DNA from: Bartonella koehlerae C-29
Lineage (GTDB): Bacteria; Pseudomonadota; Alphaproteobacteria; Rhizobiales; Rhizobiaceae
Length of the DNA: 64,000 nucleotides
Assembly (NCBI RefSeq): GCF_000706625.1
Contig: NZ_KL407334.1
Location: 1 to 64,000 of the forward strand
Reading direction: 5' to 3'
Part shown: positions 9,025 through 59,218 of the stretch, in pieces
Position numbering within the stretch: position 1 is the stretch's first letter
Layout: each line of letters opens with the position of its first letter
Position numbers and translations under genes: made by a program
The notes under the pieces: generated by a model
What the model saw: the letters and a program-made list of their open reading frames with translations, nothing else
What the model was told of the DNA's origin: nothing
Database searches by the model: none

Positions 9025-9489
9025 ATGGAAAAGTGCAGCATGGTGGATAATAAGCAGATTCATATTTCAAAAGACCATTGCATAGAGCAATGCGCACTGC
9101 CTCAAGAGCTCCCTTTAGACCCTACAGTAGAGCGCATCAGAAAAAAACTTATGCGTTTCATGATTATTTCCATTTCCATAACGCTCATGATAACTCTTGC
9201 TGTCTTATTTTTAGTTGCTTATAAAATGTTAGCAACAAGATCAACTTCCAAACACCTTCCTCAATTTTCCTCTCACAGCAAAAATCCAGAAGTTGCTTAC
9301 CACACACTCTCTCTACCGAAAGGAACACAAATTCTGTCGCAAAGTCTTTCGGAACACAATATCGTATTGAAAATCTTAATGCCAGACAATCAAATAAAAT
9401 TTATGGTTTACAATTACCATACCGGTGCACTTATCGCTGTTCTTTCTGTTGAAACAACACAGCCAAATATCGCCCCTCAGCCCCGTTAA
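9025..9489 (+). CDS. Single-pass membrane protein, DUF6476-like
   Basis: 154 aa with a polar N-terminus, one transmembrane segment (about residues 45-68, MIISISITLMITLAVLFLVA) and a periplasmic domain ending in HNIVLKILMPDNQIKFMVYN and TGALIAVLSVE. The hydrophobic anchor followed by a short beta-rich domain with an ILMPD-type motif resembles the alphaproteobacterial DUF6476 family; that assignment is from memory and unverified. The start at 9025 is the first Met; an internal Met at residue 6 is possible. It sits between the small exported protein and the DUF4167 debris, and its last bases overlap the edge of the decayed copy. Role unknown. Confidence 0.65.
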   Translation: MEKCSMVDNKQIHISKDHCIEQCALPQELPLDPTVERIRKKLMRFMIISISITLMITLAVLFLVAYKMLATRSTSKHLPQFSSHSKNPEVAYHTLSLPKGTQILSQSLSEHNIVLKILMPDNQIKFMVYNYHTGALIAVLSVETTQPNIAPQPR

Positions 9490-10008
9490 CACGGCAACAC
9501 TGCCACAGACCCTTAAACAATGTTTTTTCGTTCAAACATTCTCCTCTGCCAAAGGGATTACGACAAAGTGACAACATGGTTTTCCCTATATTTCGCACCC
9601 AAGCAAAGGCAAAGACGTATCTTTCTCTGTCAGTTACAGCACCATTTTCTGATGCTGCCCATAAAAATCTAAAATGGGAAAATTCAAGGGATGATTCTTC
9701 TTGAACACGGACAGTGCGCTGACGTGAAGGTTGACGTGTTTTCTTGACAGGTTCAGGCTTTTCTCCCAAAATCCACTGCGCTTGGTCCGTATTTTCATCT
9801 GGCAAAGTACCTGCCTCTAGCGTCTCATACAGGCATATTCATTTTGAGTTTCTGCCCGCCGACCATTTCCATTTTTCTGCAGCTGTGTTTGTGACACACT
9901 GATATCACAGTGAACGACAGTGTCTTTTTTTGCATCTTCCACATTTATTTCATCGTATTATCGCGATTCTCATCACAACGAACAAATTGTGGCATCTGCT
10001 CAATCCTT
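9478..10008 (-). pseudogene. Decayed partial duplicate of the DUF4167 gene (3' half)
   Basis: Nearly collinear with 10045-10570. Shared blocks include the segment encoding PDENTDQAQ, the EPVKKTRxPSRxRTVRVQEESSLE segment (9690-9770 versus 10240-10320) and QTQQQKNG. Frame-breaking indels occur, for example in the region matching the Glu/Arg-rich C-terminus, and the copy lacks the conserved N-terminal DUF4167 domain. It lies immediately downstream of the intact gene in the same orientation, so it is a tandem 3' duplicate. Confidence 0.85.
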
Positions 10009-13954: not shown

Positions 13955-14110
13955 CAAAATGAGATATTCTTTCATAGAACAAACAAGCCTTTGAAAGAAA
14001 ATAGTTTCCATCGCGATAGTCACATCCATTTTCATACATTTTTTTGCAGTAAGAGTACAACTTTTACCTTTTTTCACGCAACTTGCCGCCCTTTAAATTT
14101 GCTCATGAAT
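13955..14110 (-). pseudogene. Decayed copy of the 3' end of the neighbouring membrane protein gene
   Basis: GAAAATAGTTTCCATCGC followed by CATTTTCATACATTTTTT at about 14000-14045 repeats 14178-14222 inside the intact gene at 14111-14554, with the preceding fragment AACAAACAGGCCT-like sequence also similar. Frames are lost. It lies just downstream of that gene in the same orientation. Confidence 0.55.
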
Positions 14111-14554
14111 TTAAAAGTGGTTGCGCGCCTTATTTTTTTCACCGTCTTTTTCATTGAGCAAACAGTCCTGTAAGAGAAAATAGTTTCCATCGCCTGGTCG
14201 CACCATTTTCATACATTTTTTCTTTGAAGTATCAGAAAGCGTATTCCACATTTCACGAATTGCAAAATAAGCTTCACTTTCCAAATAAAGACAGTGCTGA
14301 TACGCTTCCTTTTTCATATCGGGCATCACTGAAGCAGCAATTTCTTTGCAATACACACGGTGATCAAAAACTGGAATAGTCAATTCAACAGGCACGTGTT
14401 GTGTTACTTGTTTGTTGGAAAAAAAATAACCGATAATTTTTACAACACCAAAACAAAAAAACACCACAAAAAAGAGCAGCATACAAACAAAAACGATCTT
14501 ACGATATAATTTTTTAAAATAAGCTTTTTGCCTCGCGCGGATTCTTTTTTCCAT
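14111..14554 (-). CDS. Small membrane-anchored protein of unknown function
   Basis: 147 aa from ATG 14554 (MEKRIRAR), chosen because it begins directly before a basic stretch and one transmembrane segment (about residues 20-42). The soluble part has a Cys-containing, mainly helical pattern: VYCKEIAASVMPDMKKEAYQ, HCLYLESEAYFAIREMW, KKKCMKMVRPGDGNYFLLQ, DCLL. Small rhizobial proteins with a similar C...E..A...W...C......Y..L..CL spacing are known without assigned function; this comparison is from memory. The gene is enclosed by a 172-bp inverted repeat and followed by a decayed copy of its own 3' end. A weak AAAGGA site lies about 11 nt upstream. Confidence 0.6.
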   Translation of the reverse strand: MEKRIRARQKAYFKKLYRKIVFVCMLLFFVVFFCFGVVKIIGYFFSNKQVTQHVPVELTIPVFDHRVYCKEIAASVMPDMKKEAYQHCLYLESEAYFAIREMWNTLSDTSKKKCMKMVRPGDGNYFLLQDCLLNEKDGEKNKARNHF

Positions 14555-21281: not shown

Positions 21282-22745
21282 TTAGCGCATGCCAGCAGAC
21301 TGCAATTCCACATCGAACCCCGTAACATGAGACCAATTCATTCCTTCCGGGATGCGCAACTTAAAGCGATAAAACCTTGCTCTTGCACGGAGATGAATTT
21401 GCCCCGTATTATGAGAAGGTTGTCTTTCTGGCAACCAAACAGTTTCCTCTTCAAGGGATTGCCGAAAGCGCATGCCCACAGATAAATAAAACTCTCCACT
21501 ATTCACTTGAGGCATAATATTTTTCACCCGTGTTATCATGCCATTTGTCTGCCCCATTTCCTGTGATGTCACCACACAAGCCATAGGAGAACCAGAAAAC
21601 GACCCCATTCTCCCCTGATGATCAAATGCACCAAGAATAGGAGATTCATTTTTCCAAACTTTACTGTCGAGAGAAAAGGGTAAATCATCAATATTCTGAG
21701 CAACCCGATCCAGTCCTTCTAAGGTAATTCCTGCAAAAAAAATGGGCAAAATCATTTTGATATCCACGACCGCCTTTGTCCATTTTTGCAATCCCCAATC
21801 ATAAACAAGTAAAATGCGTTCGTGAATACTCTCATCGGTATCAACCATCCAATAAACGCGATTATACACCCCATCGATAGCAGCAGACAGAGTATACAGA
21901 TTATTCTGTCTCGATTTTGCCGTCATGGTTCGGTCGACTTTTTCGAAGCCAATTGGTATAATTTGTCCCTCATTGGTGATCTGATAAAATCCACCCTCAT
22001 CAGCAAAGAATGCAAGATCTCCTCGACAAACGATAGATTCAGCGTTTTTTGCGCCGCGCTTATCGTGGATTTTTTGGAAACTAAAAATAATCTTAGATCC
22101 AGGAATAAAAGAGCCGGCATAGATTGCAGAACGCATAAATATGATTGGATTTGTTGTTTCTGTTGCGCCTTGCACAAAACCGCCATCGGGAAAATCTTGA
22201 TAATCGCAGCTTTTTTTTCCCACAGTCCAAAATTCGGCATCGTTCAATCCTGACCAATGGACACGTCTTGGATGCTCTGTCAATTTCATCAAACAAACGA
22301 AATCTCCCCACACACGCACAATCCCGGCTTGTGGTGGATTTCCACCTAAATTTCTAAAGTTTTTGTCATGATTAATGTCGATCACTTGTGGCTTATCATT
22401 GGCATTCACAGCAATGACATAATCCCCAAATAAAGCGAAAGACCATGGAGCATCGACATTGGCAAGATAAGATTTTCCCTTTTGACTGATATTTTTCCAC
22501 TGCTTTGTAGTATTGTCGAGAAGGTAAATTTTTTGTCCGGTCCCAACAATAATAGACACACCATTTTTCGTTTTAACGGCAAGAGCTCCTAAAATTGGAT
22601 CAGGGCAAGGTTCTGACATAGGTTGAAAGCTTGGCATAGGAATATAGGACCCATCAGCAGGCAATACATTGATAAGCTCATCGGTAAAGATGCCATTAAT
22701 ATCAGCGACATCAGGCCGATAATCAGCAACTGGAAAAAAAGCCAT
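21282..22745 (-). CDS. Phage tail structural protein, podovirus type
   Basis: 487 aa from ATG 22745 (MAFFPVADYRPDVADINGIF); an ATG 12 bp further up lies inside a decayed copy of the upstream gene 3' end, so I prefer the internal start. The sequence is beta-rich with propeller-like repeats (ALFGDYVIAVNANDKPQVID, YWMVDTDESIHERILLVYDW), as in packaged-DNA stabilisation or tail-hub proteins of P22-like phages. It follows the gp4-like adaptor gene, in the order seen in such phages. Exact role (tail tube, hub or receptor binding) is not determined. Confidence 0.75.
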   Translation of the reverse strand: MAFFPVADYRPDVADINGIFTDELINVLPADGSYIPMPSFQPMSEPCPDPILGALAVKTKNGVSIIVGTGQKIYLLDNTTKQWKNISQKGKSYLANVDAPWSFALFGDYVIAVNANDKPQVIDINHDKNFRNLGGNPPQAGIVRVWGDFVCLMKLTEHPRRVHWSGLNDAEFWTVGKKSCDYQDFPDGGFVQGATETTNPIIFMRSAIYAGSFIPGSKIIFSFQKIHDKRGAKNAESIVCRGDLAFFADEGGFYQITNEGQIIPIGFEKVDRTMTAKSRQNNLYTLSAAIDGVYNRVYWMVDTDESIHERILLVYDWGLQKWTKAVVDIKMILPIFFAGITLEGLDRVAQNIDDLPFSLDSKVWKNESPILGAFDHQGRMGSFSGSPMACVVTSQEMGQTNGMITRVKNIMPQVNSGEFYLSVGMRFRQSLEEETVWLPERQPSHNTGQIHLRARARFYRFKLRIPEGMNWSHVTGFDVELQSAGMR

Positions 22746-22805
22746 TGAGAACCCCATTAGAAGAATATTTGAAAAGCCTTATCAATGCGAGATTTCAAAC
22801 CGCCA
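22746..22805 (-). repeat. Decayed copy of the adaptor gene 3' end
   Basis: 22746-22805 matches 22998-23060 (for example AGAAGAATATTTGAA versus GGAAGAATATTTGAA, then CGCCAAAGCT versus CGCAAAGCT). The source encodes the end of the gp4-like adaptor (SSNILPMRF); the copy has stops. It abuts the start of the tail protein gene. Confidence 0.75.
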
Positions 22806-23006
22806 AAGCTTTTTTATTTTAACCACAAAAGTTCTATAAGATAAGACTCTGTAACAAAAGCATAAAACTTAGATTATAGAGAGCAAACGCAAACACATTG
22901 ATATATTCACGAGTAAAATGACATAAATGTCAACACACCAGCAATTAACACCAGTCATCAGCCACCAGCGACCAACGCCAATCATCAATGATAGAGTAAA
23001 GAGCCT

Positions 23007-23702
23007 CTAAAACCGCATTGGAAGAATATTTGAAGAGCCTTTTCGACGCGATGTTTCAAATCGCAAAGCTTGGAGCTGTTCTTGAAAGTCTCTAAAAGAA
23101 GAAGAAGCATATTCAGGATCTTTAAGGATATTTTTGTAGAGTTCGTATTTTGCACGTGCTTTAATAAGATCAAATGCATAAATCAACCAAGGATTATCGT
23201 CCTCCATCACCTGTTCATCTCCAAAACGGATAGAAGCATAAGAAAGACGCACGGTCTCAACCTCTTTGGGTGTTGGAAAAAGCCCTATTTTTTGATCAAG
23301 GTATGTATAAAAGAGAGGCATTCCTTGTGGAGGTTTTAATCCATATTGTTGTTGCAACACTTCAACGGATTTAAAAAGTAATTGTATTTGTGTTGCAGCA
23401 TGTGCTCCTAAAAAGACGGTTTCAAGAGACCTTTTTGATTGAATAAAAACGCCCTCTTCCTGCCCATACCATGTTTTTTCACATTGCGTTTTGAATATCA
23501 CCTCCCTTTTTTCATTAAAGAAAAAGGGTTCTCGTTCACACAAACGCAAAGCATTAAAAATTGAATCTTGAATTTGAACGGAATATTCAGCTGTTGTATC
23601 ATCAATTTCATCTTGAATAAGTGCGACCATAAAGGCAAAAGTGTGAGAATGGTCTGAATGTATAAGATTGAGATGATTTGGATCAATGGATGAAACGGTC
23701 AT
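23007..23702 (-). CDS. gp4-like head-to-tail adaptor protein
   Basis: 231 aa, mostly helical, starting MTVSSIDPNHLNLIHSD. The layout (an N-terminal helical part with FAFMVALIQDEIDDTTAEYS, a central strand region YLDQKIGLFPTPKEVETVRL, a C-terminal helical tail RAKYELYKNILKDPEYA) fits the P22 gp4 family that extends the portal and accepts the tail. The position right after the capsid gene and before the tail protein agrees. ATG 23702 has AAAGGA 12 nt upstream; a TTG two codons earlier has better spacing, so the start may be 23708. Confidence 0.75.
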   Translation of the reverse strand: MTVSSIDPNHLNLIHSDHSHTFAFMVALIQDEIDDTTAEYSVQIQDSIFNALRLCEREPFFFNEKREVIFKTQCEKTWYGQEEGVFIQSKRSLETVFLGAHAATQIQLLFKSVEVLQQQYGLKPPQGMPLFYTYLDQKIGLFPTPKEVETVRLSYASIRFGDEQVMEDDNPWLIYAFDLIKARAKYELYKNILKDPEYASSSFRDFQEQLQALRFETSRRKGSSNILPMRF

Positions 23703-24080
23703 GGGCAATGATAATCCTTTTGCGTGTGAAGCATTTTAAGTATCTTTCCTACAAAAAATGTATTCTTGTGAGAGAAAAAATTCGCAAGCTTTTCAAACAG
23801 CTTTTAAAGTAAGCACTCCAGAAGCTCAAATCACGCGCGTACAGAAATTCGAACACCTTCTCTCCTCTAGAAATTTCTCCTCCCTAGCAGCATCTTCTGT
23901 TAAGAAGAAGGATTCCTATAACTTTTAAGCAGCTCTTAAAGGAAGTGCTCCATAAATTGGCATCACGATACTACCAAAATTCTAGGCTCTTTGGTTGTTC
24001 TCTGACAAGCTCTAAAGCCAATACTTGGAGCCGCTCCCCCCAACAAGATATTCTGTTGGGAAGAAGCATTCGAATATCCT
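23703..24080 (-). repeat. Two decayed copies of the capsid gene 3' end
   Basis: Three tandem units of about 125 bp can be lined up: the real capsid end (from about 24055), a copy at about 23905-24010 and an older one at about 23785-23880. Guide blocks are GTGCTCCATAAGTTGGGATC, GTGCTCCATAAATTGGCATC and GCACTCCAGAAGCTCAAATC. Neither copy is open. Together they fill the gap before the adaptor gene. Confidence 0.8.
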
Positions 24081-25199
24081 TTAAGCGGGTGCTCCATAAG
24101 TTGGGATCACGATGGTACCAAAATCTTGTGCCCCTTGTGTACTTCCTGGCAAGGTGAAGCAAGTTTTTTTCATACCGATAATGGTTTTTGCTGCAACACC
24201 GAACTCTCGTTCATAATCGAACAACTCTTCTACCAATTTATAGCGTGTAGCGCCGCGATCTTTTCCAAAAGCGATGACAGCACTTTGTGCACCCAAAAGA
24301 ACAGCACGGCGCACATTTGGTACAGCTTTATTTGTTGCACTTGATTCAACACCTTCGGTAACATGCTCAGCCTCACGCAAGACGACGCCATTATACATCC
24401 CAAGTGATCCATCATAGAGAGGGTTTTTAAGGCGGCTCCCACTATAGATTGCCTTGGTAATATCAAGCCACTGACCGGCTTCTGTATTTGTTCGCAATTG
24501 TGTCACCTGCGTTGGGTGCAGATAAAGCACATAAACATTTTCCCCCTCGACGCGGACAGGTCTAATTTTTGGATTTGCCAACTTAGCTCGTTCAACAGCT
24601 TGATCGATCAGTTTAAGATCAAAGACATCGGTTTGTTTCAAATCTTCATCTTTTGTTTTTCCATTAGGGCGCACGACGCGTTTATCGGTTGGTGCAGTTG
24701 GTGCATTAAACCCATAATGGACAGGTTTAAGAGCAATAGTACGTCCTTCAAAATTAATGGCTTTTGCAGTATAGCCGCAAACTTGAATAAAGAACATCAA
24801 ACTTAAACGATCAGCATACCAATCAACCAACCCATTTTTGGCTTCAGTACGCAAATCGTGCAAGATACGTTGCTGATCGATGGTACCTTCATTTTTGACA
24901 CGCACCGCATGAACAAGTTCATTAATTGCCAAGCGATCACTGAGAAATTGGAGGGCTTCTTCATTGCCTTCAAGCGCCTGCCCTTCACTCACCCCATCGC
25001 CAAGCAGCTGTACGCGCAAATTAAAACTAATGGCATCACCACTTGCTTTGGTGGTTTCATCTTTTAATTGTACGATACTATTTGAATCATTCCCAATCAA
25101 AGGTGCAATAGGGATTGCTTTTGAGACTTCCTGGTTCAAGAGTTTAGACCACGTGCGCACTGCCATTGGGTCATTAAGTCCGATGTAAGTTACAGTCAT
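24081..25199 (-). CDS. Major capsid protein, N4-gp56 family
   Basis: 372 aa forming the shell of the particle. The start MTVTYIGLNDPMAVRTWSKL, the LNQEVSKAIPIAPLIGNDSN segment and the N-arm/E-loop region GDAISFNLRVQLLGDG with GVSEGQALEGNEEALQF are typical of the N4-gp56 (HK97-fold) capsid family; DGSLGMYNGVVLREAEHV and AQSAVIAFGKD lie in the second half. The length is normal. Good ribosome binding site (AGAGGATAAA) before ATG 25199. Preceded by the scaffold-like gene and followed by the adaptor. Two decayed copies of the 3' end follow the stop. Confidence 0.9.
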   Translation of the reverse strand: MTVTYIGLNDPMAVRTWSKLLNQEVSKAIPIAPLIGNDSNSIVQLKDETTKASGDAISFNLRVQLLGDGVSEGQALEGNEEALQFLSDRLAINELVHAVRVKNEGTIDQQRILHDLRTEAKNGLVDWYADRLSLMFFIQVCGYTAKAINFEGRTIALKPVHYGFNAPTAPTDKRVVRPNGKTKDEDLKQTDVFDLKLIDQAVERAKLANPKIRPVRVEGENVYVLYLHPTQVTQLRTNTEAGQWLDITKAIYSGSRLKNPLYDGSLGMYNGVVLREAEHVTEGVESSATNKAVPNVRRAVLLGAQSAVIAFGKDRGATRYKLVEELFDYEREFGVAAKTIIGMKKTCFTLPGSTQGAQDFGTIVIPTYGAPA

Positions 25200-25530
25200 T
25201 TTATCCTCTAAAAGTTTATTGACATAAAAAAGTCGGCAAAGTGCCGGTTGTTAACATTCCACATTTCTCCTTTTCAGAGAGTGGATCAGTTATTAGGTGT
25301 TTTGTATGATTTTTATTGATTATCTTTGCCTCCCCCTTTGAGCAATTTTCTCATTGCACGAGCCACCTCAACTCCCATAGGTTTGCCTCAAGAGTTCCTA
25401 GGCAGACGTCTCAAAAGGCCCGGCACATATCGCCTCCAATCCCTCACGCAACCGCCTCAAGCCCTACACAACCACTTCACGCCTCCAAACAATCTACTTC
25501 GAGAATTTCCCCACCATGCATTCATGGCTT
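25200..25530. other. Gap between scaffold and capsid genes, decayed repeats
   Basis: No gene. Segments such as GAATTTCCCCACCATGCATT (about 25502-25521) resemble the 3' end of the scaffold gene at 25533 (GAATTCTCCACCACCCATTA), suggesting an old partial copy; a more decayed one may start near 25328. Similarity is weak. Confidence 0.4.
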
Positions 25531-26328
25531 TTAGAATTCTCCACCACCCATTAAGCGATTAAAAACAGCTTTGTTTTTTGGATCAGCAATCCAATGATTA
25601 AATTCTGTCTCCGACATTTTGTCGAGCATATCCAAAGAAATGGGTTCTTTTGGCGTCAAACCGTTATAGGCAGCAAGTGTGCGTGCAGAATTTTGCCTTT
25701 CCTGAAAATTTTCACCAATGGTATTTGGAGAATTTGTGTAACCAATTTTTTGCGCGATAGCGTAAATCACTTCGGCAGGATTTTGATTTTTTTTCGCACA
25801 ATCGTGCAAGATCTGTTTCAATTCATTACCAATCACTGCATCCACGATATTTGGGTCAGCCATTTCAGGATAGAGCGAAGAGAAAGCTGCCAACTGCTTA
25901 GCCCGCGTATCATAAATAAAGTCAGCAGCTTGATCAAAATCATGATGCTTTTGTTTAACAGCAGCAACAGATTTCTGATAGAAAGCATGCAACTGTTCTG
26001 AGTCAGGGCTCATAACAGGTGGTTGTTCAGAGAGCAACGCCCCTTGTTTGTAGAGTGTTTTTCCCAACCATTGTATATAACCCATAAAATCTTTTTGCGG
26101 GTCTGGTGGAACATCAACTTCTAGCACCTTTTGAACATCTTGTGACTGTGAATCTACTTGCAATGATCGCTGTTGTTGATGTACATTTCGGTGCCCTTGG
26201 AAATTTTCTTCGAAAGTTTTTGCTTTTTCTCCCGCTCCAATTTCACTATCTTCTCCCTGTTGGGCTCCTGAAAGAGAACCCTTTTTCAATTGGTTTTGTT
26301 CTGCTGGGTTTAAATGTTCTTGATCCAT
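25531..26328 (-). CDS. Scaffold-like protein of the capsid module
   Basis: 265 aa, very polar. Acidic/Gln-rich disordered N-terminus (EQNQLKKGSLSGAQQGEDSE), central helices (PQKDFMGYIQWLGKTLYKQG, HAFYQKSVAAVKQKHHDFDQ) and a C-terminal helical part. This composition and the place between portal and major capsid genes fit an assembly scaffold; sequence families of scaffolds are poorly conserved, so the call rests on context. ATG 26328 is chosen because AGAGAAGG lies eight bases upstream; the longer frame begins with TTG. Confidence 0.75.
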   Translation of the reverse strand: MDQEHLNPAEQNQLKKGSLSGAQQGEDSEIGAGEKAKTFEENFQGHRNVHQQQRSLQVDSQSQDVQKVLEVDVPPDPQKDFMGYIQWLGKTLYKQGALLSEQPPVMSPDSEQLHAFYQKSVAAVKQKHHDFDQAADFIYDTRAKQLAAFSSLYPEMADPNIVDAVIGNELKQILHDCAKKNQNPAEVIYAIAQKIGYTNSPNTIGENFQERQNSARTLAAYNGLTPKEPISLDMLDKMSETEFNHWIADPKNKAVFNRLMGGGEF

Positions 26329-26910
26329 ATTGTTGGCCTTCTCTTTTTCAGACAATAAAATAATATTTTTTCAAATGAAGTCGTTTACCTTTACACATGC
26401 GCCTTCTACAAAATGGTCTACCAACTGCTTTTCCCCTGCATGACCACTAAGGCTGCCTCCAACATTACCAGCGCCTCCCCTTTATTCACACCGCAATGTT
26501 ATACTCTCCACTAGCTCCACCACTAAGTTCTTCTACTACTGAGCTGCTCTCCAGCATGTCATGTAATGGAGCACTTTGCCTCACTAAGCTCTGTTTTGTA
26601 TTCTGAGTATAATCTTATGGATGAGTGATGCGGACAAAAGAAAAGAACGCTGAAGATTAGGCATCCTGAACATAAAGCCATTTACCTTTGCGCCTTTGCC
26701 TTCTACAAAATGGATTGCATCAACTGCTCCACATTACCGTTAAGCTCTCCACTAGCCTCTCTGCTAAACTCTCCTCAACGCCTGCCATACAATGGAGAAC
26801 TTTTCCTCTCTAAACTCTACTTATGCGTTTTAAGTGCAATTTTGTTGAAAAGCCGATGCGGACAAAAGAAAAGTATGCAAAAAATTAGGCATCCTAAACA
26901 CAAAGCCATT
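26329..26910 (-). repeat. Two decayed copies of the portal gene 3' end
   Basis: Copies at about 26380-26640 and 26670-26900 match the last 150-200 bp of the portal gene (26911 onward): CCTTCTACAAAATGGATTGC versus TCTTCTGCAAAATGGATTGC, then CACTTTGCCTCACTAAGCTC-type sequence, and GGATGAGTGATGCGGACAAA versus GGATGAGTGATGCGGGCAAA. Frames are broken. The nearer copy is the better preserved, so duplication happened at least twice. Confidence 0.85.
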
Positions 26911-28755
26911 TCACTTTTTATGTGTCTTCTGCAAAATGGATTGCATCAGCTGCTCCACACCGGCATGACCGCTAAACCCTCCTAAAGCCTCAGTACTATT
27001 TTGCAATGAAGCACTTTGTTCCTCTAAACTCTGCTTTTGTACTTTGAGTGCAATTTTATGGATGAGTGATGCGGGCAAAGGTGAATAACGCAAAAGATCG
27101 AGCATAATATCTGGCGTTGTAAAACTTTGCATCAAAGGCAGCAATTGTATAATAATAGCAAATGTCCGCTCTTTTTCATTGAGACTTGTTGGAGCATCAT
27201 CAACCACAATATCATATTCCAAACTGGTGATCATTTCGCGTGTTAACGGCACATACCTAGCATTTTCATCACCAGCAATACGCACCAATCGCCCATCGGA
27301 AAGATAGTTTTGAATAAGATAGAGAATAATTTTTCCCTGTCGTTGCCGATATCGCCGCAAACCATCAAAAAAAGAAGCTAACAAATTGAGTGAAGATTGG
27401 CGACGTTGTTGTTCAAGAATTCCTGGTTGGTTTACCGCCCGCGTTCCGACAAATTCAGAAGACAATCCGGTCACTTGTTCGATCGCGCCTTTTGCTTCAT
27501 TAAACAACTGAAAGAAGCCTTGTGGGAATTGTGCAACAGGCTTAGGCTGGATTCTTCCCCCAGAAACAGCCCCACTTTTTAGCCAAGTAATGCTATCGGC
27601 TCTTGCCCAACTCTCTGTGGCTTGGCGATCATCATCAAAAGCATCGCGTTCAGCCATAATTCCGCCTTTTGACTGACTATTAAGCAAATGCATCACTTGA
27701 CTAAAATATTTATTTGCCCAGCGTTGCGGATCTTTTGTTGGTTTGACAATCCCATAAAATTGCCGGCTCAACTTATCAAAAGTGCCGGTAATACACTCCC
27801 ACCCCAATTGATTTGGTGGCACCAAAGGTTTATCTGGTGCTTCAAGCAGTTTTCGACCCAAAAAAGCACGTTTGACAATTTTTTTCGTCAATCTTGTCGC
27901 TTGGAGTCCAGGAAAATTTTCGAACAAATTTTGGAAATCCTGCTCCGAATAATCGATAAATTTTCCACTTAAAGGATCGAGGACTTTATAAACAATCTCA
28001 CGCTCGAACCAGCGGCATTCAGCTAATGTGACCATTTTAGGACGTTGATAGCTACCCACCTCCTCCACATCTACACGATAGCTTTGCGTATTAATAACGC
28101 TAGTTTGATGAAAAAATGTCTGATGTTTGACCCAATCAGCATTGAGATCACTCCAATGGACATGAGGAAACATTTCCTGAGCCATTGCCAGCGGTTTTTC
28201 ATCAATATACCATAGACGCTGTGCATCAACTAGATTGGGCTTTACAGCACTTGCATCCCAGACCATTTTCATTGGGTCCAATCGTGCAATCACAGGTTTT
28301 CCTTGCGGATCCTCTTCATAATCAAGCCTGGTATCTGTCCACCCCATTCCGCAAATGATAGCATCTTGAAAGGCATCAGAATCCTCGTACTCTCCGTCAG
28401 CTTCATCACGAAACCATTCGGCTGCTCCAGTGAGAATCTGGTTGGCAAAGGCAGCCCCTTCTTGACGTGGAATAAATTGCACTTGTCGTTTATTATTACG
28501 CTCTGCACCAATCACAGCATTGATCAAAGGAGCAATGCGGTTAAAAGTCATGACCGGTCTGTTTTGTTCGCGCAACACGGCAAGATCTTGCTCATTCCAT
28601 TGGCGTCCATTATAAAAATCGTAGTCTTCTTGGGCATTTTTTCGCCATTGCTCGACATGTGCAATATCGTCCTGATACCAGCTGACGAGTTTTTTGAAGA
28701 GTGCTTGGTGTTCAAGCGTCTCTAGTGGATCAAAAGAGTCTGTAAAAATATTCAT
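26911..28755 (-). CDS. Portal protein, P22-like
   Basis: 614 aa. The dodecameric portal forms the DNA entry channel and docks the terminase. Family segments: WRKNAQEDYDFYNGRQWNEQ, NRPVMTFNRIAPLINAVIGA, AFQDAIICGMGWTDTRLDYE and DPMKMVWDASAVKPNLVDAQ, then a long helical C-terminal part. P22-type portals are longer than lambda types, as here. The start at 28755 overlaps the terminase stop by one base (TAATG) with GGATGG upstream; an in-frame ATG at 28770 would lie inside terL. The C-terminal tail is Gln/Ser-rich. Two decayed 3' copies follow. Confidence 0.9.
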   Translation of the reverse strand: MNIFTDSFDPLETLEHQALFKKLVSWYQDDIAHVEQWRKNAQEDYDFYNGRQWNEQDLAVLREQNRPVMTFNRIAPLINAVIGAERNNKRQVQFIPRQEGAAFANQILTGAAEWFRDEADGEYEDSDAFQDAIICGMGWTDTRLDYEEDPQGKPVIARLDPMKMVWDASAVKPNLVDAQRLWYIDEKPLAMAQEMFPHVHWSDLNADWVKHQTFFHQTSVINTQSYRVDVEEVGSYQRPKMVTLAECRWFEREIVYKVLDPLSGKFIDYSEQDFQNLFENFPGLQATRLTKKIVKRAFLGRKLLEAPDKPLVPPNQLGWECITGTFDKLSRQFYGIVKPTKDPQRWANKYFSQVMHLLNSQSKGGIMAERDAFDDDRQATESWARADSITWLKSGAVSGGRIQPKPVAQFPQGFFQLFNEAKGAIEQVTGLSSEFVGTRAVNQPGILEQQRRQSSLNLLASFFDGLRRYRQRQGKIILYLIQNYLSDGRLVRIAGDENARYVPLTREMITSLEYDIVVDDAPTSLNEKERTFAIIIQLLPLMQSFTTPDIMLDLLRYSPLPASLIHKIALKVQKQSLEEQSASLQNSTEALGGFSGHAGVEQLMQSILQKTHKK

Positions 28756-30080
28756 TAAAAAGCCATCCATGAAGTTTGAGAATGGTGATAAGAATGATAA
28801 ACACTTTTTTTCAGCCGTATATTTGGCTGTTCATAAGCCACACACATGAGTCCGAAACTATCAGCACCATGGCTTGCCCAATCATGTTCAGCACCCAGTC
28901 CGATATTACGCTGTTCGTCCCGTTTTTCATGATACCAAGCGAGTGCTTTTCGCCCAGCATGTGTTGTTTCACGGTTAAACCATATAGCAGGAAACAATCG
29001 CCTTACGGCTTCGATACGCATTTTCACAGCCCCCACACCTTGATTAGGAATAACCTTAGTTTGAAACCCAGCTTGTTGGAGAGCACTTTCAAAACTCACA
29101 TTATAGACACGATCTTTCGTTGCCCCATCATGGGGCAAGACCATCAATGCCTTGTCATATCCTCTTTGAAACACCCAGCCAACATGCTCAGAGAGTGGTT
29201 GTCCTTGGGCTTCATAATAATCGAGGACACGGATTTCTCGTCCTACAAATTGTGCTACCCATAAAGCGGTGGCATCAGCCTTTGCTCCTGTTCCACCGAT
29301 ATCCCAAAAGATTCTGATCTGCATCAAGGGATCACGAGGAACAGTAGTAATGCGCCCCTCCTGTTCAGCTTCCAGCAGCACTTTTTGATAATAAGCACCT
29401 TCAACAGTTTGGAGATATTCCCCTTCCCAAATATGGTTATAGTATTCAGGCCGTTGTTCTAAATCCGCCTTGCGATCTCGATTAAGTTTTTCGGGAAATT
29501 GAGGATTATCACGCCAAGTGATTTCAGCACCTTTGATATGAGGATTATTGACATTTCGGAAACGTTTTTCGACGGGTGCATTTTCACGGCAAGGATTCCA
29601 TGTCACCCACAATTCGGCATTCCAATCTTTTCCTTCCTCGCGCAAAGTTGGAATAAGCGTTTGCCAAGCGGCCTCAGTCACAGGCTCTGCCTCATCGACC
29701 CAGCAAAGGAAAACACGCCCCATGGATTTAATACTTGCGATATTGCGATCAAGTCCAGCAAAAACATAGACGATATTTCCATCTTTTGACTTGATATATT
29801 TATCGCCGATTTCATAATAGTCTTGCAGGAAAGGATAGGCTTTAATAGCCCGTTTAATTTCTTCCAAGGAACTTTCACTGAGTGAATTTTGAAATTGTCG
29901 TGCACAGAGTATAATCCCTTGTTCTCCAGACTTTCCATGCCGATATCCAATCACGGCAGACATCAAAGCAAAGGAGCGTGTTTTCCCAGACCCCCGTCCT
30001 CCCCAAGCAGCACGCACATCGGCTTTTCCGGTAAAAACAGGTATAAGCTTTGGAATAAGAGCAATTTGCGCAGTCGTCAT
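28755..30080 (-). CDS. Terminase large subunit, PBSX/podovirus type
   Basis: 441 aa ATPase and nuclease that pumps DNA into the capsid. Walker A GGRGSGKT at residues 27-34, Walker B with catalytic Glu in VFLCWVDEAE (about 123-132), coupling motif LWVTWNPC, and the C-terminal RNase H-like nuclease starting FWDIGGTGAKADATALWV near 260, with its acidic residues visible. Full length and undamaged, so packaging is probably functional. The ribosome binding site GAGGATGA precedes ATG 30080. A decayed copy of its first codons lies upstream near 30355-30405, part of a junction-spanning duplication with the preceding small gene. Confidence 0.93.
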   Translation of the reverse strand: MTTAQIALIPKLIPVFTGKADVRAAWGGRGSGKTRSFALMSAVIGYRHGKSGEQGIILCARQFQNSLSESSLEEIKRAIKAYPFLQDYYEIGDKYIKSKDGNIVYVFAGLDRNIASIKSMGRVFLCWVDEAEPVTEAAWQTLIPTLREEGKDWNAELWVTWNPCRENAPVEKRFRNVNNPHIKGAEITWRDNPQFPEKLNRDRKADLEQRPEYYNHIWEGEYLQTVEGAYYQKVLLEAEQEGRITTVPRDPLMQIRIFWDIGGTGAKADATALWVAQFVGREIRVLDYYEAQGQPLSEHVGWVFQRGYDKALMVLPHDGATKDRVYNVSFESALQQAGFQTKVIPNQGVGAVKMRIEAVRRLFPAIWFNRETTHAGRKALAWYHEKRDEQRNIGLGAEHDWASHGADSFGLMCVAYEQPNIRLKKSVYHSYHHSQTSWMAF

Positions 30081-30516
30081 TCATCCTCAAGCATAACGCC
30101 CCTCAAAAAACACGAGTGCCCGTAGACTACAGTGTCAAGACTCTACCATCTTCAAATATCATGCCAAATACTCCTCCCCTCAAGCATCACCCTCTTTACT
30201 CTTCTCAGAGATTGCATCCTTTGCACGCACCAGTACAATCTCAACAGGTGAAACAGTCTTAACACCTCCTCCCTTTTCATCCCATAACTTGCACAGGTAA
30301 AATTTACAAGAAGCGAAAAACAGCCTCATAAGGCACACACACCAGCTTTTCCAGTAAAAACAGAAATAAGCTTTGGAATAAGAGCAATTTGCGCAGTTGT
30401 CATTCATCCTCAAGCATAACACTCTTCAAAAAACATGCCCCCAAAGGAGACGATGCCCGTAGACTACAGTGTCAAGACTCTACTATCTTCAAATATCACG
30501 CCAAATACTCCTCCCC
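30081..30516 (-). repeat. Remnant of a terS-terL junction duplication
   Basis: Unit about 30030-30340 is repeated at about 30350-30660. Reading leftward from the intact small gene one meets intergenic sequence, then a fragment of the terL start (30355-30405, including the ribosome binding site and the first codons), then a decayed copy of the small gene 3' end (about 30180-30290), then intact terL. Identical blocks include CCCGTAGACTACAGTGTCAA and TTTGGAATAAGAGCAATTTG. Confidence 0.9.
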
Positions 30517-36715: not shown

Positions 36716-37289
36716 AAAATAATAATTTCCTTTATAGATAGCTGATGCGTTTTTGAGCAGCGCATTATTTTTCAGCGTTCATATCTTATTTTCTTGGTTT
36801 TGTGAACAAAAATTCAACAAAAAGGAAAAGGTTTTTCTTGTTATATTTGTTCCCTGACGCTCTCAAAAAAACTTTAACAAGTCTCTGTACATATCCTTTT
36901 AGCAGGTTGAACTACACTCTCAAGGCATTCTTTAGGGCAAATTTCACTCTTCTTACTCTTTATCTCACCGACATCGTACCTGACCAAACTTCTCGTTTAG
37001 CGCACTCTCCAGCCTACTCTTTTTTCCTTCTTTCCGTTCTACTCTCCCCATAGTCACCACACCTCACTGATAACCAATCATCCTCCAACCTTCCAACAAC
37101 AACCTCATCGCAAACCGCACAATCCTCCTTGTCATCCGGCCCTTCACCCCACTCCCCATCTCATCCTTCAGCCTACTCTCTCTCCATCGGACACAATCAC
37201 ACCAATAACTCCCCTTCACATCCCTCTCATTTCTCCCTTCAAATGGCACACCATATCATTCTTTAGAACAATCTTTGCCCCATCTTTAC

Positions 37290-37400
37290 AATACATTTGT
37301 GAGGACGAAGATCATACACACTGTTTTCCATTTTTACAGATTTACGTTTTATCGTTTTTGTGATTACACGAAAAATAGTAAAGTAAGCTTATGATAAAAA
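37290..37400. repeat. TTTTACG-rich repeat tract, copy 1
   Basis: AAGATCATACACACTGTTTT followed by TTTTTACAGATTTACG and TTTATCGTTTTTGTG. Related tracts lie at 37920-38000 (AGATCATACACAATTTTCC, then TTTACGTTTTTACATTTTTA) and 63470-63556. Each sits downstream of a CCACC/CTCC-rich stretch. Confidence 0.6.
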
Positions 37401-37919
37401 CACCGTTAGGATACATTTGAAAAACACTTAAAATAAGAAGAAAACACATGAAAGTGTACTCCTCTTATTCACTCATCCACTCCTTTCTTTTCCAGCTTGC
37501 TCTCAGCCTATAAGCAAACTTCCACGAACAATTACCCCACCAAAAACCACTCTCATGATTTAATTTTGAAAAGTCCTATTTCTTTTCATTGCAAGATAAA
37601 AAAGTAAATTTTAACATGTCATTCAACTCTGCATTATGCAAAACTTTTTACGAACGAACAACTTCCCCACCGGCATCCAATTCCACCAGAAACAACCTCC
37701 TTCAACGCCGCTTCACCAACAACCAACCCACAAACCTACAAGTACCAGCCGCCTCCTCATCCTTTAGCCCACTTTTTCACCTCGCTCACTACACCACCCT
37801 CCAACATCCTCTCTCCCTACCGGAAACGGCCTCACCGGCAACTCCTCTTCACCTCACTTTTCAATTTCCCCTTCAAAAAGCCATCCTCCCACACACCCTT
37901 TCCCATCTTTACATCACAC

Positions 37920-38000
37920 TTTTAAAAACACAGATCATACACAATTTTCCTATTTTTTTTATCTTTACGTTTTTACATTTTTACGAATTTACAGAAAAAT
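37920..38000. repeat. TTTTACG-rich repeat tract, copy 2
   Basis: Second member of the family described at 37290-37400. Confidence 0.6.
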
Positions 38001-38149
38001 ATAAAAGAGTATAAAATGAAACACGATGATAAGTTTTTAAGTTTATCGATCAGAGAACGCACTTAATAGAAGCTATAGTATATTGATATTTTCTCTTTAA
38101 AAGCCAGTATTTTCACAATAAAAATGCACACTATCCCCCGCATTAAAGT

Positions 38150-38536
38150 AATGCAACACATCGATTTATAATGATAAATCATCGTTTTGCTTATTGAATA
38201 AGATCCCTGAATATCGTAAGGTTCTCTCATCTCAAATCCTTTTATAATCAATCGATTAAAATCACTTACTTGCATGTCATAAGCGGGGCTGGCGTGTGAA
38301 TAAAAACTCTTCAAGAAAAGAGGTAAAAATACTCCACCATCTCAATGCAAGGACAATCGCAACATTTTGAGCTGACAAAGAGTTATGACAAAACTATCTT
38401 CCAATTTCATAAGCGTAAAAACGATAGTGAACAATGGCTTTTACAGTACCTCCTTCACAAACGCCTTCGTGAAATAGGCTTAGGAGCCTTGAAAAATGTT
38501 TCTTTAAAACAAGCGCGTGAATTGGCAACACAATAG
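38150..38536 (+). pseudogene. Decayed phage integrase leader and N-terminus, copy C
   Basis: The final open part (38345-38536) reads as the DUF4102-type integrase N-terminal domain: SEQWLLQYLLHKRLREIGLG then ALKNVSLKQARELATQ and a stop where the protein should go on. The leader shares blocks with copies A and B (CCTGAATATCGTAAGGTTCT, ACTTGCATGTCATAAGCG). No core or catalytic domain follows. Confidence 0.8.
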
Positions 38537-50344: not shown

Positions 50345-50622
50345 CCAACTTATACTGAAAACTGAAGCGGAGGTGCTTGTGCATATTCAACTGAGTGATT
50401 TTAAACTTGCCATGCTTGACCTGCATCATGCTCTAAAACTCGAACCGCGCTAATTATAGAGCATTTGAGCTTGGAGGTTACTATGGAAGCAACACAACCA
50501 CCAAAGTTTGCATTCAAAGCCTATGAAAGAGCACTGGAATATTACCCACAAATGCAAAAGCTAAAAAAGCACTTTAATGTGCTTTTAGACGAGCAATCAC
50601 CGCAAGTTCACTTACTCCCTTA
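50345..50622 (+). pseudogene. Partial tandem copy of the TPR gene 3' end
   Basis: 50379-50450 is identical over about 72 bp to 50069-50140 in the intact gene, with a +1 indel (CGCGCTAATTATAGAG) just after it. The rest to 50622 matches the remaining 3' end and stop with about 15-20 percent divergence. No start of its own. Confidence 0.9.
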
Positions 50623-51000: not shown

Positions 51001-51078
51001 CCATCGGTTGTTGTGGATCACCACTTTTGCACAAATGCAACAAGATGGTATTGTCCTTTGGAGCTTCTTTGCATTAAA

Positions 51079-51217
51079 ATCGTGGGCTTTTTCATATGGC
51101 ACCCACCTATTTTTGTAGGTTCCCAGGGATCAACTTTTTTCATCGGTTGTTGTGAATCATCACTTTTTGCACAAATGTAGCAAAATGGTATCGTCCTTTT
51201 TGGCGGGGGGAAAATCA
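51079..51217 (+). repeat. Tandem copy of the 6S RNA 3' segment and flank
   Basis: 51081-51217 repeats 50942-51078 with a period of 139 bp and about 90 percent identity, including CGTGGGCTTTTTCATATGGC, CCACCTATTTTTGTAGGTTC and the following CATCGGTTGTTGTG. In the copy GCGCCCACC is CACCCACC-like and CCCGGGG is CCCAGGG. It has no 5' half, so it is not a second 6S RNA. Confidence 0.9.
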
Positions 51218-55008: not shown

Positions 55009-55752
55009 CTAATCCGCCTCTTTTCTTTCCCTTCCTATACTTTGTTTTGCCTTTTCTGCCCCGGAGAGACCTCTCCTCTCACACGCCTGCCGGCTTATAC
55101 TCTCCTCTGAATCATTTTGGCTTCTCACGCTTTCTGCTGTTTTGGCACCCTGAATTTGTTGCACCATAATTTCCAAAGCCTCATTAAAATGGTTAATCTC
55201 ACTTTCCAGTTTGCGAATATAGGCTTCGTCACGATAAGCGCGTTTAATCAAAGGCGGCATATCAGGCCAATAGAGCATCAAATCGATCCATTCGCGTTGG
55301 GCGATCCATAATCCTCCCTGACATTGCGCTTTATGCTCTGCGGGAAAACTTTTTTGCGTAAAATGCGGGATCAAGATTTCAGGTTTTTTTGTTTTAATTT
55401 CCAAGAGTCCATTTGTTCCAATAAAAGCATCGGGAGAAAACCCTTTCATGCGATCATCAGCCAGAACAAAACCAACAGACTGAGGCTCAGTATGCGTGAG
55501 TGTAGCATAAAGCTCGCGTGCAATTGGTTCCAATTCTGTACCGCGGCGCATGGAAAGCGTTGTTGCCTCTTCGACGACTTTTCCGGTGATTCTTTCTCCC
55601 GCGAGTTTTCTCATAACAGCATGATATTTTGAGGTTTTTTGCCCCTGTTTTTTTTGTGCCATCACCATTTCAAACAAAGACGCCGTAATCAAGCCATTGC
55701 GCACCTGATGCCATTGCTCTGTTCCTTGAATACAATCGATAATAATTGGCAT
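55009..55752 (-). CDS. YqaJ-family viral recombinase nuclease
   Basis: Lambda-exonuclease-like nuclease of phage recombination systems. 247 aa from ATG 55752, which has AGGGGAG seven bases upstream; the longer frame to 55779 is not preferred. Motifs: GTEQWHQVRNGLITASLFEM at the N-terminus, MRRGTELEPIARELY, the metal-binding GFSPDAFIGTNGLLEIKTKK (Asp, and Glu-x-Lys), and AHKAQCQGGLWIAQREWIDL. The C-terminal 60 residues are charged and less typical. No single-strand annealing partner is seen nearby. Ends 86 bp from tRNA-Thr. Confidence 0.9.
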   Translation of the reverse strand: MPIIIDCIQGTEQWHQVRNGLITASLFEMVMAQKKQGQKTSKYHAVMRKLAGERITGKVVEEATTLSMRRGTELEPIARELYATLTHTEPQSVGFVLADDRMKGFSPDAFIGTNGLLEIKTKKPEILIPHFTQKSFPAEHKAQCQGGLWIAQREWIDLMLYWPDMPPLIKRAYRDEAYIRKLESEINHFNEALEIMVQQIQGAKTAESVRSQNDSEESISRQACERRGLSGAEKAKQSIGRERKEAD

Positions 55753-56522
55753 ATTATTCTCCCCTGATTTTTGAAGCATCTTTACTCTTTAAAAAGACTT
55801 GAAGAAGTCTTTTTTATAAAGCAGCACCTCTTTCGAAACCCATCCGCTATTTCCAATATTTTTGAAACATTGTGCGATATGATCCCCCTGCAAACATGGG
55901 CCCGCATCCCCACGGATGCACTGCACCTCTCCCCAGCATAAACACTTTCCCCTTAGCTGCCCCACCTAGACGCTCCCCCCCAGAAAAACTAATAACTTCT
56001 CTGTTCTGCTATAAAAGCCCCAAGAATCTTCGATCCAAAAAACTTTCAGTCCAAAGAAACTTCAGTCTGAAGGGCTTTCTCCCTTGTCACTAACCTCGCA
56101 ATCTCTGCCTCCTCCATCAAACACAATACAGCTTTTCCCAAAACACCTCAGACATAAAGCATTTTGAGTATTTTTCATGCTTATCTTAAAGAGCTATCGA
56201 TCAAATCACAGAGGATTTCTAAGTCTACGTCCTTACTTCATTGACTCAACATGATCCCTCCTCAATAAAGTCTACATTTCCCCATGGACGCTCTGCACCT
56301 CTCCCCAACATACACCCCCGTAGCCGCCCCACCTAAACACTCTCTCAGAAAAACCAAGTAACTTCTCTGTTCTGTTATAAAAGCTCCAAGAATCTTCGAT
56401 CCGCAGAATCTCCACCCTAAAGAACTTTTAATCTGAAGGACTTAAGGACTTTTAGCTAGCCACATCTTCAATCTGAAGAATTCTAATGGCTTTTTTTCCT
56501 GAGCTTCTATGACAAAAGATTT
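55753..56522. repeat. Direct repeat of about 200 bp in gene-free DNA
   Basis: About 55875-56085 and 56245-56450 are imperfect direct repeats roughly 365 bp apart (TAACTTCTCTGTTCTGCTAT versus TAACTTCTCTGTTCTGTTAT; CCAAGAATCTTCGATCC in both). No gene in either; their source is not in the window as an intact gene. Confidence 0.75.
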
Positions 56523-58201: not shown

Positions 58202-59218
58202 ATGCAACACGCCAATCAACAAGAAACTCCATATTATGAATCGTGTACGCTTCCCTATGTTTGTTGGTATCAGAATGATTTTCTAGGAGGTGTTCGTGGA
58301 ATGCGGGCACACGAAATTGGGATTTATACGATTCTCCTTAACGAAATGTACGCACGTGGTCGTCCTCTAGAGTTATCGGTAGAACGTTTAGCGCGTCTTT
58401 GCGGTTGTGACAAGCGAACTTTTGTAAATGTTTTAGAAATGCTTGTACGAGAGGGAAAGATTTTAAATTTAGCGAATGGTTTATGGAATAAGCGGTGCGA
58501 AAATGTATTTTATGAGCGAGCGAAATTGCTTGAACAAAAATCCTTTGCGGGTCGTTCTTCGGCAAAAAAACGCAAGGAAATCAATGCTAAGATTCAACGA
58601 CTGCTCAACGAGAGAGCAAGAGATAATGAACGTAACTCAGAATCTCAGAAGGGAGAAGAAAAGGAAACACCTCACGGTGTTTCAGAAAAGCCATTTTTTT
58701 TGATGCAAGCAGGAGAAGAGAAAAGGTATGAGACAGCATGCACAGACCTATGTTCTGGATGCACATCCACACAGGCTTGTACCCTTACGACACCTCCAGA
58801 ACAAGAGAACAGCAAGCACTTTGCTGATTCTAGCGGAGAGCAAGCAAGTTTCTCCGGCTCTATCGGCAAAGCCACAAGCCGGCCAATACTCCCCAAAGGA
58901 CAACGTCTTCCGAGCGATTGGCAAGCAGACATCGGTGCAGCGATTTCAGAAGGTTTGAGTGAAGAGCAAGCGCGTTGGCAAGAAAAGAAATTTCGTGATT
59001 ACTGGCATGCAAAAAGCGGCAAAGAGGCGCTGAAAGTAGATTGGCAAGCCACATGGCGCAACTGGTTTCGCCGCGAGATTGAACGAATAAAAGAACATCA
59101 AGAAAGGCTTGCCATTTTTTCTTCTCATGCATCCCCAGCACCACCTCGGAGCGACAATAATGCCCTTTACCGCAGTCTCATCAACTACCACACGAATGAA
59201 CATGAACACGATTGTTGA
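58202..59218 (+). CDS. DUF1376-type phage replication protein
   Basis: 338 aa. N-terminal DUF1376 domain: YVCWYQNDFLGGVRGMRAHE, IGIYTILLNEMYARGRPLEL, then a winged-helix-like SVERLARLCGCDKRTFVNVL. Proteins of this type sit where lambda O-like initiators are found and are often followed by a primase-helicase, as here. The middle is a charged linker; the C-terminal segment LPSDWQADIGAAISEGLSEE and KFRDYWHAKSGKEALKVDWQ, TWRNWFRR is a common C-terminal module of phage initiator/helicase-loader proteins. The start at ATG 58202 has AAGTGGATTGAAGT upstream, a weak site. Its 3' end and the next gene's 5' end are duplicated downstream. Confidence 0.82.
   Translation: MQHANQQETPYYESCTLPYVCWYQNDFLGGVRGMRAHEIGIYTILLNEMYARGRPLELSVERLARLCGCDKRTFVNVLEMLVREGKILNLANGLWNKRCENVFYERAKLLEQKSFAGRSSAKKRKEINAKIQRLLNERARDNERNSESQKGEEKETPHGVSEKPFFLMQAGEEKRYETACTDLCSGCTSTQACTLTTPPEQENSKHFADSSGEQASFSGSIGKATSRPILPKGQRLPSDWQADIGAAISEGLSEEQARWQEKKFRDYWHAKSGKEALKVDWQATWRNWFRREIERIKEHQERLAIFSSHASPAPPRSDNNALYRSLINYHTNEHEHDC

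What the first reader, a model, noticed from the sequence alone, without database searches (positions are those of the whole stretch)
22746..30516. Virion genes followed by decayed copies of their own 3' ends
gp4 (one copy), capsid (two), portal (two), terS/terL (one) and perhaps scaffold (one) each have degenerate 3' copies filling the downstream gap. Copies nearer the gene are better preserved. The same pattern occurs at DUF4167, yacG, TPR, 6S RNA and DUF1376 elsewhere in the window. This is not a normal intergenic pattern and suggests repeated small tandem duplications, perhaps linked to local over-replication.
Basis: partly seen in the sequence, partly recalled or inferred. Interest (0 to 1): 0.85.

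Follow-up and report, generated by a model that had tools for sequence, protein, structure and literature searches.

The report
Tandem-duplication hotspot around run-off replication origin
Around the spot where Bartonella bacteria over-copy part of their chromosome to fill gene-transfer particles, the DNA is full of short stuttered copies of nearby sequence, including gene ends, which suggests that this over-copying leaves lasting mutations in bacteria that survive.

Summary
The window is the gene-transfer-agent/run-off-replication (ROR) region of a Bartonella. It holds 13 local head-to-tail repeat clusters, against 0 in each of 20 shuffles and 2 inverted clusters; four overlap the flagged interval.

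They are short tandem duplications, not a 3'-end-specific process: two gaps carry both a 3' echo of the upstream gene and a 5' echo of the downstream gene, as duplication across a gene junction predicts. 3' echoes do outnumber 5' ones.

The main result is position. In 12 ROR-bearing genomes clusters number 23.4 per 100 kb within 31 kb of ROR, 10.4 at 31-130 kb, 3.05 beyond. Young non-intragenic ones (at least 90% identical) fall from 9.7 to 1.4 to 0.16. The fitted centre (20-70 kb) includes ROR and BaGTA and excludes oriC and terminus. BaGTA-like paralogue clusters (1 young in 626 kb) and ROR-less relatives (1 in 220 kb) have almost none. G042, with ROR, has no cluster near it; unexplained.

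Best reading: over-replication from the captured phage origin is a heritable local duplication mutator. Whether duplications arise in over-replicating survivors or in DNA recipients is unsettled.

The parts
58202..59218 (+). ROR gene 4 (DUF1376 protein); the literature places the run-off origin inside this gene
   Evidence: PF07120; Guy 2013 section 9; that this ORF is gene 4 is inferred from its place upstream of the helicase
59788..62268 (+). ROR primase-helicase (Toprim and weak DnaB-like match)
   Evidence: gap to gene 4 varies from -47 to 1309 bp among 11 other genomes
55009..55779 (-). ROR phage exonuclease (YqaJ)
   Evidence: PF09588
30517..30843 (-). gene in the TerS position of BaGTA (phrog_11043, unknown function)
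28755..30080 (-). terminase large subunit
   Evidence: PF04466, phrog_3717
26911..28770 (-). P22-like portal
   Evidence: PF16510
25531..26355 (-). gene in the scaffold position (no echo found downstream)
   Evidence: phrog_24697, unknown function
24081..25199 (-). major capsid protein
   Evidence: PF13252
   Evidence: phrog_19385
21282..22757 (-). virion structural protein gp3287
   Evidence: phrog_3287
30333..30435 (-). 5' echo of terL and its upstream sequence (copy of 30010-30112)
   Evidence: 90% over 103 nt
30117..30278 (-). 3' echo of terS and its downstream sequence (copy of 30454-30615)
   Evidence: 87% over 162 nt
26554..26885 (-). two decayed portal 3' echoes, periods 226 and 440 (copy in the gene 27002-27098)
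   Evidence: z 15.2
23877..23980 (-). capsid 3' echo (gene side 24034-24124)
   Evidence: 71%; z 6.8
22750..22811 (-). 3' echo of gp19385 (copy of 23011-23071)
   Evidence: 84%; z 9.9 for the whole gap
22812..22953 (-). 5' echo of gp3287 (copy of about 22566-22728)
   Evidence: score 191 against a maximum of 137 in 300 shuffles
9453..10003 (-). 3' echo of the DUF4167 gene
   Evidence: 81% over 570 columns, period 572
   Evidence: 75%, period 282
50379..50609 (+). 3' echo of the TPR gene
   Evidence: 88%, period 312
51073..51199 (+). 3' echo of 6S RNA (RNA at 50862-51023)
   Evidence: 91%, period 139; RF00013
59630..59937 (+). 3' echo of gene 4, reaching into the start of the helicase ORF
   Evidence: 81%, period 686
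59251..59591 (+). gap copy of a segment inside the helicase ORF (60392-60642 and 60693-60956)
   Evidence: 73% and 85%
55907..56443 (.). tandem pair upstream of the exonuclease gene
   Evidence: 79%, period 372
37143..38007 (.). pair, period 633
   Evidence: 67%
13970..14221 (.). pair, period 179
   Evidence: 84%

Best explanation
The echoes are decaying remains of short tandem duplications (periods of about 90-870 bp for the middle 80% near ROR) that arise at a greatly raised rate around the phage-derived run-off replication origin that serves the Bartonella gene transfer agent. Shown here: the tandem geometry, the peak over the ROR/BaGTA region, the excess of young copies there, and their near absence from similar gene sets elsewhere and from ROR-less relatives. 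Inferred: extra rounds of bidirectional replication crowd and break forks, and repair or template switching joins ends head to tail with little homology; at least some cells in which this happens survive. Duplications across a gene junction leave both genes intact and so are kept; between gene u and gene v they leave a 5' piece of v followed by a 3' piece of u. The 5' pieces carry start signals and are probably lost faster, which would give the 3' bias.
For: Peak in G000: 57 clusters in 841.5 kb sampled, 26.7 and 20.0 per 100 kb in the 30 kb on either side of ROR against 0-3.9 in the bins beyond 200 kb; fitted centre 50 kb (20-70), likelihood ratio 48.6, centre at 310 kb next to oriC worse by 23 log units and at 1180 kb by 24 (oriC about 314 kb and terminus about 1.1 Mb from GC skew). 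Twelve genomes: 169 clusters in 722 kb near, 66 in 636 kb mid, 38 in 1244 kb far; near copies are younger (median 89% vs 76%, p 2e-7), with shorter periods (p 5e-5) and abutting in 94 of 169 against 7 of 38, which points to more births rather than slower loss. Young non-intragenic: 70 near, 9 mid, 2 far. TRF, period >=50: 66, 16, 5. Near exceeds far in 11 of 12 genomes. BaGTA-like paralogue loci: 1 young in 626 kb against 45 in 719 kb of BaGTA loci, and 7 of 8 measured gaps of the paralogues have a median of 97 bp or less. ROR-less genomes: 9 non-intragenic and 1 young in 220 kb around BaGTA (p 2e-9 and 3e-7 against near ROR). Units are not one repeat family: 10 of 176 resemble another unit of the same genome. 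Thirteen young two-copy arrays have array length minus period of median 0 nt. Amplification in B. grahamii peaks close to or within the ROR helicase and falls off on both sides (Berglund 2009).
Against: G042 has hits to all six ROR proteins tried but no cluster within 31 kb of ROR. The window's own genome has only 1 young near event. ROR-less G003 has a mild excess around BaGTA: 7 vs 3 non-intragenic clusters per 100 kb and 5 vs 1 TRF arrays per 100 kb, and several BaGTA gaps are long in ROR-less G003 and G044. The unsorted non-Bartonella loci gave 7.4 clusters per 100 kb, above the Bartonella far value. BaGTA release goes with lysis of the donor (review), so survival of over-replicating cells must be assumed. 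Guy 2012 found only a minor rise in synonymous substitutions in the amplified segment. The BaGTA genes also lie in the centre interval, 1.5 log units worse than the best. Species share ancestry and some old echoes; homogenisation of arrays can make copies look young.
Confidence: 0.62

Rival explanations
1. Duplications arise in recipient cells: BaGTA particles deliver mostly ROR-proximal DNA, and faulty recombination of incoming fragments makes tandem copies.
For: Packaging and transfer depend on distance to ROR (review; Berglund 2009), so this predicts the same spatial profile.
Against: It should raise ordinary recombination there as well; [quoted passage not shown] Young two-copy arrays without long end homology are not the usual product of homologous uptake (general knowledge).
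Confidence: 0.2
2. No raised birth rate: the region is gene-poor and weakly constrained, so random duplications persist longer there.
For: Noncoding DNA is 339,659 of 660,000 bp near ROR and 162,580 of 660,000 bp far away in 11 genomes.
Against: Per noncoding base the excess remains 45.6 vs 14.2 clusters per 100 kb, and near copies are younger, not older; young events differ about 60-fold per base.
Confidence: 0.08
3. The BaGTA genes, or an active phage-like locus as such, attract duplications independently of ROR.
For: The fitted interval includes BaGTA; ROR-less G003 has one young repeat just after TerL and one older repeat a little upstream of it (TerL place).
Against: BaGTA-like paralogue clusters have 1 young event in 626 kb; three ROR-less genomes have 1 in 220 kb around BaGTA; in G000 density stays high for 100 kb on the side of ROR away from BaGTA.
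Confidence: 0.07
4. The arrays are functional, for example as packaging, termination or regulatory sites kept by selection.
For: They cluster at a functional element.
Against: Units rarely resemble each other (10 of 176), periods differ between species at the same gap, and copies decay.
Confidence: 0.03

Closest known systems
Bartonella run-off replication (BaROR) and BaGTA (Berglund 2009: passages and one section; Guy 2013: passages and one section; Quebatte and Dehio 2019: abstract and two sections)
   Same: Same locus, same origin gene, same peaked bidirectional amplification zone
   Different: These describe amplification, packaging and transfer. Nothing I read in them reports a duplication gradient at ROR. 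[quoted passage not shown] that is a coding segment at two sites. Guy 2012 tested substitutions and found a minor rise.
Re-replication induced gene amplification in yeast (Finn and Li 2013, abstract read)
   Same: Refiring one origin yields head-to-tail duplications around it
   Different: There, segments flanked by homologous repeats are amplified by single-strand annealing; here units are short, lie beside the origin over tens of kb, and show no long end homology.
Replification as a genome instability factor (Kuzminov 2016, abstract and one section read)
   Same: Proposal that local over-replication breaks forks and that bubbles can become tandem duplications
   Different: A proposal; this would be a natural bacterial case with a mapped gradient.
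B. henselae VNTR loci used for MLVA (passages of three papers)
   Same: Tandem arrays whose copy number changes; BHV-A, the only intergenic one of five, is called the less stable
   Different: Their map positions were not in the passages seen, so any link to ROR is untested.

Membership tests
Over-replication-induced tandem duplication | Head-to-tail duplications | tested here: met
   Abutting direct copies and junction geometry; in G000 82 local direct against 7 local inverted matches
Over-replication-induced tandem duplication | Centred on the refiring origin | tested here: met
   near exceeds far in 11 of 12 genomes; the interval for the centre, 20-70 kb, also holds BaGTA
Over-replication-induced tandem duplication | Lost when the origin does not fire | tested here: inconclusive
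   ROR-less genomes are low, but G042 has ROR genes and no excess; no mutant was tested
RRIGA (yeast) | Homologous repeats at the amplicon boundaries | tested here: not met
   13 young two-copy arrays: length minus period median 0, range -31 to 18. They were picked by length/period 0.85-1.25 out of 70 young events, which itself bars very long end homology.
RRIGA (yeast) | Amplicon contains the origin | tested here: not met
   Of 57 clusters in G000 one, 58944-60956, overlaps gene 4; the rest lie beside it
BaROR region | exonuclease, gene 4 and helicase near BaGTA | tested here: met
   gene 4 matches in 60 of 71 genus genomes, three of them weak
BaROR region | Active amplification in this strain | not testable with these tools
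   Sequence only
VNTR/minisatellite | Many near-identical copies, polymorphic within a species | tested here: inconclusive
   47 of 152 near non-intragenic arrays have more than 2.6 copies; no within-species data

The most novel reading that the evidence does not exclude
The domesticated phage origin that feeds the gene transfer agent is a germline duplication mutator: it fires, perhaps often, in cells that do not lyse, and over evolutionary time it has pulled apart once-overlapping genes and built much of the intergenic DNA in the surrounding 100-200 kb, including its own origin locus.
Probability: 0.5. Interest if true: 0.85.

Novelty: new variant of a known kind. Interest (0 to 1): 0.76.

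Why it matters
If run-off replication leaves heritable duplications, then over-replicating cells, or the recipients of their DNA, contribute to the lineage, contrary to a picture in which every producing cell simply lyses. It would give a countable genomic record of past origin firing that can be compared between species, explain one source of the noncoding DNA in this part of Bartonella genomes, and provide a natural system for the proposal that local over-replication causes tandem duplication. It also adds a mutation class that the earlier test of ROR mutagenesis (Guy 2012, substitutions) did not cover in the parts I read.

Tried and rejected
Rejected as readings: a 3'-end-specific mechanism (5' echoes occur at the same junctions); a mobile or sequence-specific repeat (10 of 176 near units, 7 of the 176 from ROR-less G003, resemble another unit of their genome); an oriC or terminus effect; noncoding content alone. 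Events with both copies in one called gene were left out of the non-intragenic counts: 17 of 169 near, 15 of 66 mid, 11 of 38 far.

Led nowhere: placing the B. henselae MLVA loci (no coordinates in the passages). Tamarit 2018 and Quebatte 2017 are not held. The non-Bartonella control is too small and unsorted: 19 loci, 81 kb, 6 clusters, 2 of them in L235. G042's lack of duplications is unexplained. Searches in which a prior report of this gradient could have shown; no title or abstract start in the listed rows reports one, but most listings were cut (for example 15 of 182, 10 of 74) and the library lacks most subscription papers.

Limits: gene calls come from a simple caller written here. A cluster means overlapping direct repeats of blastn bits >=38 at distance <=1500 (bits >=36). 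The stretches of the 11 other ROR genomes were chosen after seeing G000 but before seeing theirs; G000 is included in the 12-genome totals. The distance of the 41 paralogue loci from ROR was not measured. Calling the ROR-less genomes bee-type, G042 B. clarridgeiae-type, and the gene names BaGTA and ROR for the window, are inferences from gene content, kinship and the papers.
Full report
What is there. The window is C1:1-64000 of a 1.747 Mb genome; 70 of 71 genomes of its genus hold its TerL, and the named relatives are Bartonella. It contains the virion-gene cluster of the Bartonella gene transfer agent: tail fibre, structural genes, capsid, portal, TerL and a gene in the TerS position. It also contains genes matching the run-off replication (ROR) module: exonuclease 55009-55779, DUF1376 gene 58202-59218 and primase-helicase 59788-62268. 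Guy 2013 (section 9 read) places the run-off origin in gene 4, directly upstream of the helicase gene. The review by Quebatte and Dehio (its sections 2 and 3 read) states that in B. henselae BaGTA and ROR genes lie in an 80 kb segment, that ROR amplifies DNA in both directions, and that BaGTA became linked to ROR only in the mammal-associated lineage.

The observation. The window has 13 direct clusters (bits >=38, distance <=1500) and 2 inverted clusters, and 0 direct clusters in each of 20 dinucleotide-preserving shuffles. Some details of the finding fail: no scaffold echo, one significant capsid echo, no gradient of preservation at the portal.

Anatomy. The terS-terL pair shows how these arise. 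Reading from terS, the gap holds a copy of the terL 5' end, then a copy of the terS 3' end, then terL. That is what a head-to-tail duplication of a segment across the junction leaves, with both genes intact. I then predicted that the gp19385-gp3287 gap should also hold a 5' echo of gp3287, because these genes overlap by about 12 bp in the BaGTA-like paralogue clusters and in ROR-less G003 and G044. It does: score 191 against a maximum of 137 in 300 shuffles. Portal and capsid gaps show significant 3' echoes only; scaf-capsid and gp3287-p20566 show none.

3' bias. In 39 BaGTA loci (38 named records and the window) there are 31 3' echoes and 8 5' echoes, p 3e-4 if independent, which they are not fully. 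Of 181 gaps of at least 100 nt, 35 have a 3' echo and 17 a 5' echo, against 6 and 5 for the ends of a non-adjacent gene. In the 12-genome set near plus mid the split is 44 to 12, and far 5 to 6. I infer selection against stray start signals; this was not tested.

Recurrence. The same gaps hold duplications of different period in different species. A terS 3' echo occurs in 12 loci with 12 different periods, 222 to 832 bp. The terS-terL gap runs from 43 to 1506 bp (33 loci) and portal-scaf from 21 to 1399 bp (38 loci), while p20566-p19445 overlaps in all 35 loci measured and terL-portal is long (422-646 bp) in only 3 of 39. Some echoes look shared by descent, for example that of gp19385 with periods of 211-302 bp in six loci.

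Position. I sampled 841.5 kb of G000. Cluster density is 26.7 and 20.0 per 100 kb in the 30 kb on either side of the origin, 15.8-17.5 from there to 100 kb, 4-10 at 100-150 kb, 2.1-6.0 at 150-200 kb and 0-3.9 in the bins beyond. A peak-plus-baseline fit puts the centre at 50 kb (95% interval 20-70 kb), decay 77 kb, likelihood ratio 48.6; ROR at 58.7 kb fits about as well (0.2 log units), BaGTA at 25 kb is 1.5 units worse, and a centre near oriC 23 units worse. oriC is near 314 kb and the terminus near 1.1 Mb by sign changes of GC skew; dnaA is at 469 kb.

Other species. From 11 further ROR-bearing genomes I took three 20 kb stretches at ROR, two at about 100 kb and three far away. Near: 155 clusters in 660 kb; mid: 38 in 440 kb; far: 23 in 660 kb; inverted clusters 5, 3, 0. 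With G000 and a mid zone to 130 kb: 169 in 722 kb, 66 in 636 kb and 38 in 1244 kb. Near exceeds far in 11 of 12 genomes. The exception is G042, with 0 near and 2 far, although all six ROR proteins tried have hits there. Its gene 4 and helicase ORFs overlap (-47 bp), while in the other ten the gap runs from 41 to 1309 bp. Non-intragenic duplications of at least 90% identity number 70, 9 and 2. The Tandem Repeats Finder, period >=50, gives 66, 16 and 5.

Birth or retention. If copies merely lasted longer near ROR they should be older there. They are younger: median identity 89% near and 76% far, p 2e-7. Homogenisation within arrays could inflate identity; 47 near arrays have more than 2.6 copies, so the young count is not a pure clock.

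Controls. BaGTA-like paralogue clusters with the same gene order (41 loci, distance to ROR not measured) give 28 non-intragenic events and 1 young in 626 kb, against 107 and 45 in 719 kb of BaGTA loci. Of the eight paralogue gaps measured, seven have a median of 97 bp or less and one, capsid-gp19385, of 549 bp. BaGTA in three genomes without a gene-4 match gives 9 non-intragenic events and 1 young in 220 kb: G003 7 in 100 kb, G044 2 in 80 kb, G014 0 in 40 kb, significantly fewer than near ROR. Against this, G003 has a mild excess around BaGTA over far (7 vs 3 per 100 kb; TRF 5 vs 1), and several BaGTA gaps are long in G003 and G044, so a ROR-independent part cannot be excluded. The non-Bartonella control, 6 unsorted clusters in 81 kb, is too small to use.

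Mechanism. [quoted passage not shown] Guy 2012 (Discussion read) asked whether ROR raises mutation and saw only a minor increase in synonymous substitutions. Kuzminov 2016 (abstract and one section read) argues that local over-replication breaks forks and could yield tandem duplications; Finn and Li 2013 (abstract read) report duplications from re-replication in yeast with homologous boundaries. Here thirteen young two-copy arrays, picked by length, show no long end homology, which fits end joining or template switching at broken or crowded forks better than annealing of repeats. The alternative that duplications form in recipients of BaGTA DNA predicts the same profile and is not excluded.

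Verdict. The echo pattern is real and is the visible part of a duplication hotspot at the ROR/BaGTA region. The location, age structure and controls are strong; the causal mechanism is inferred.

Noticed in passing
window 59251-60956: The helicase ORF carries two tandem copies of a unit with an 89-codon period (60469-60675 and 60736-60942, 94%) related to the gap after gene 4; no hit to about residues 243-389 was shown for G006, G012 and G042.
   Followed up: partly
G042 (L184-L186): A ROR-bearing genome with no duplication cluster within 31 kb of ROR and overlapping gene 4 and helicase ORFs; perhaps a lineage in which run-off replication is inactive.
   Followed up: partly
window 13622-13806 and 14792-14971: Inverted repeat, 86% over 185 nt.
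   Followed up: no
window 12848-13228, 15201-15501, 38157-38535: Three dispersed related copies of about 300-380 nt, 68-74% alike.
   Followed up: no
window 37001-38000: GC skew of -0.61 in one kilobase, by far the most negative of the window.
   Followed up: no
G000:C1:184718-186770 and 1706787-1714733: Dense arrays with longer periods (about 430, 880, 1300-1480 bp) some 85-130 kb from ROR; contents not examined.
   Followed up: no
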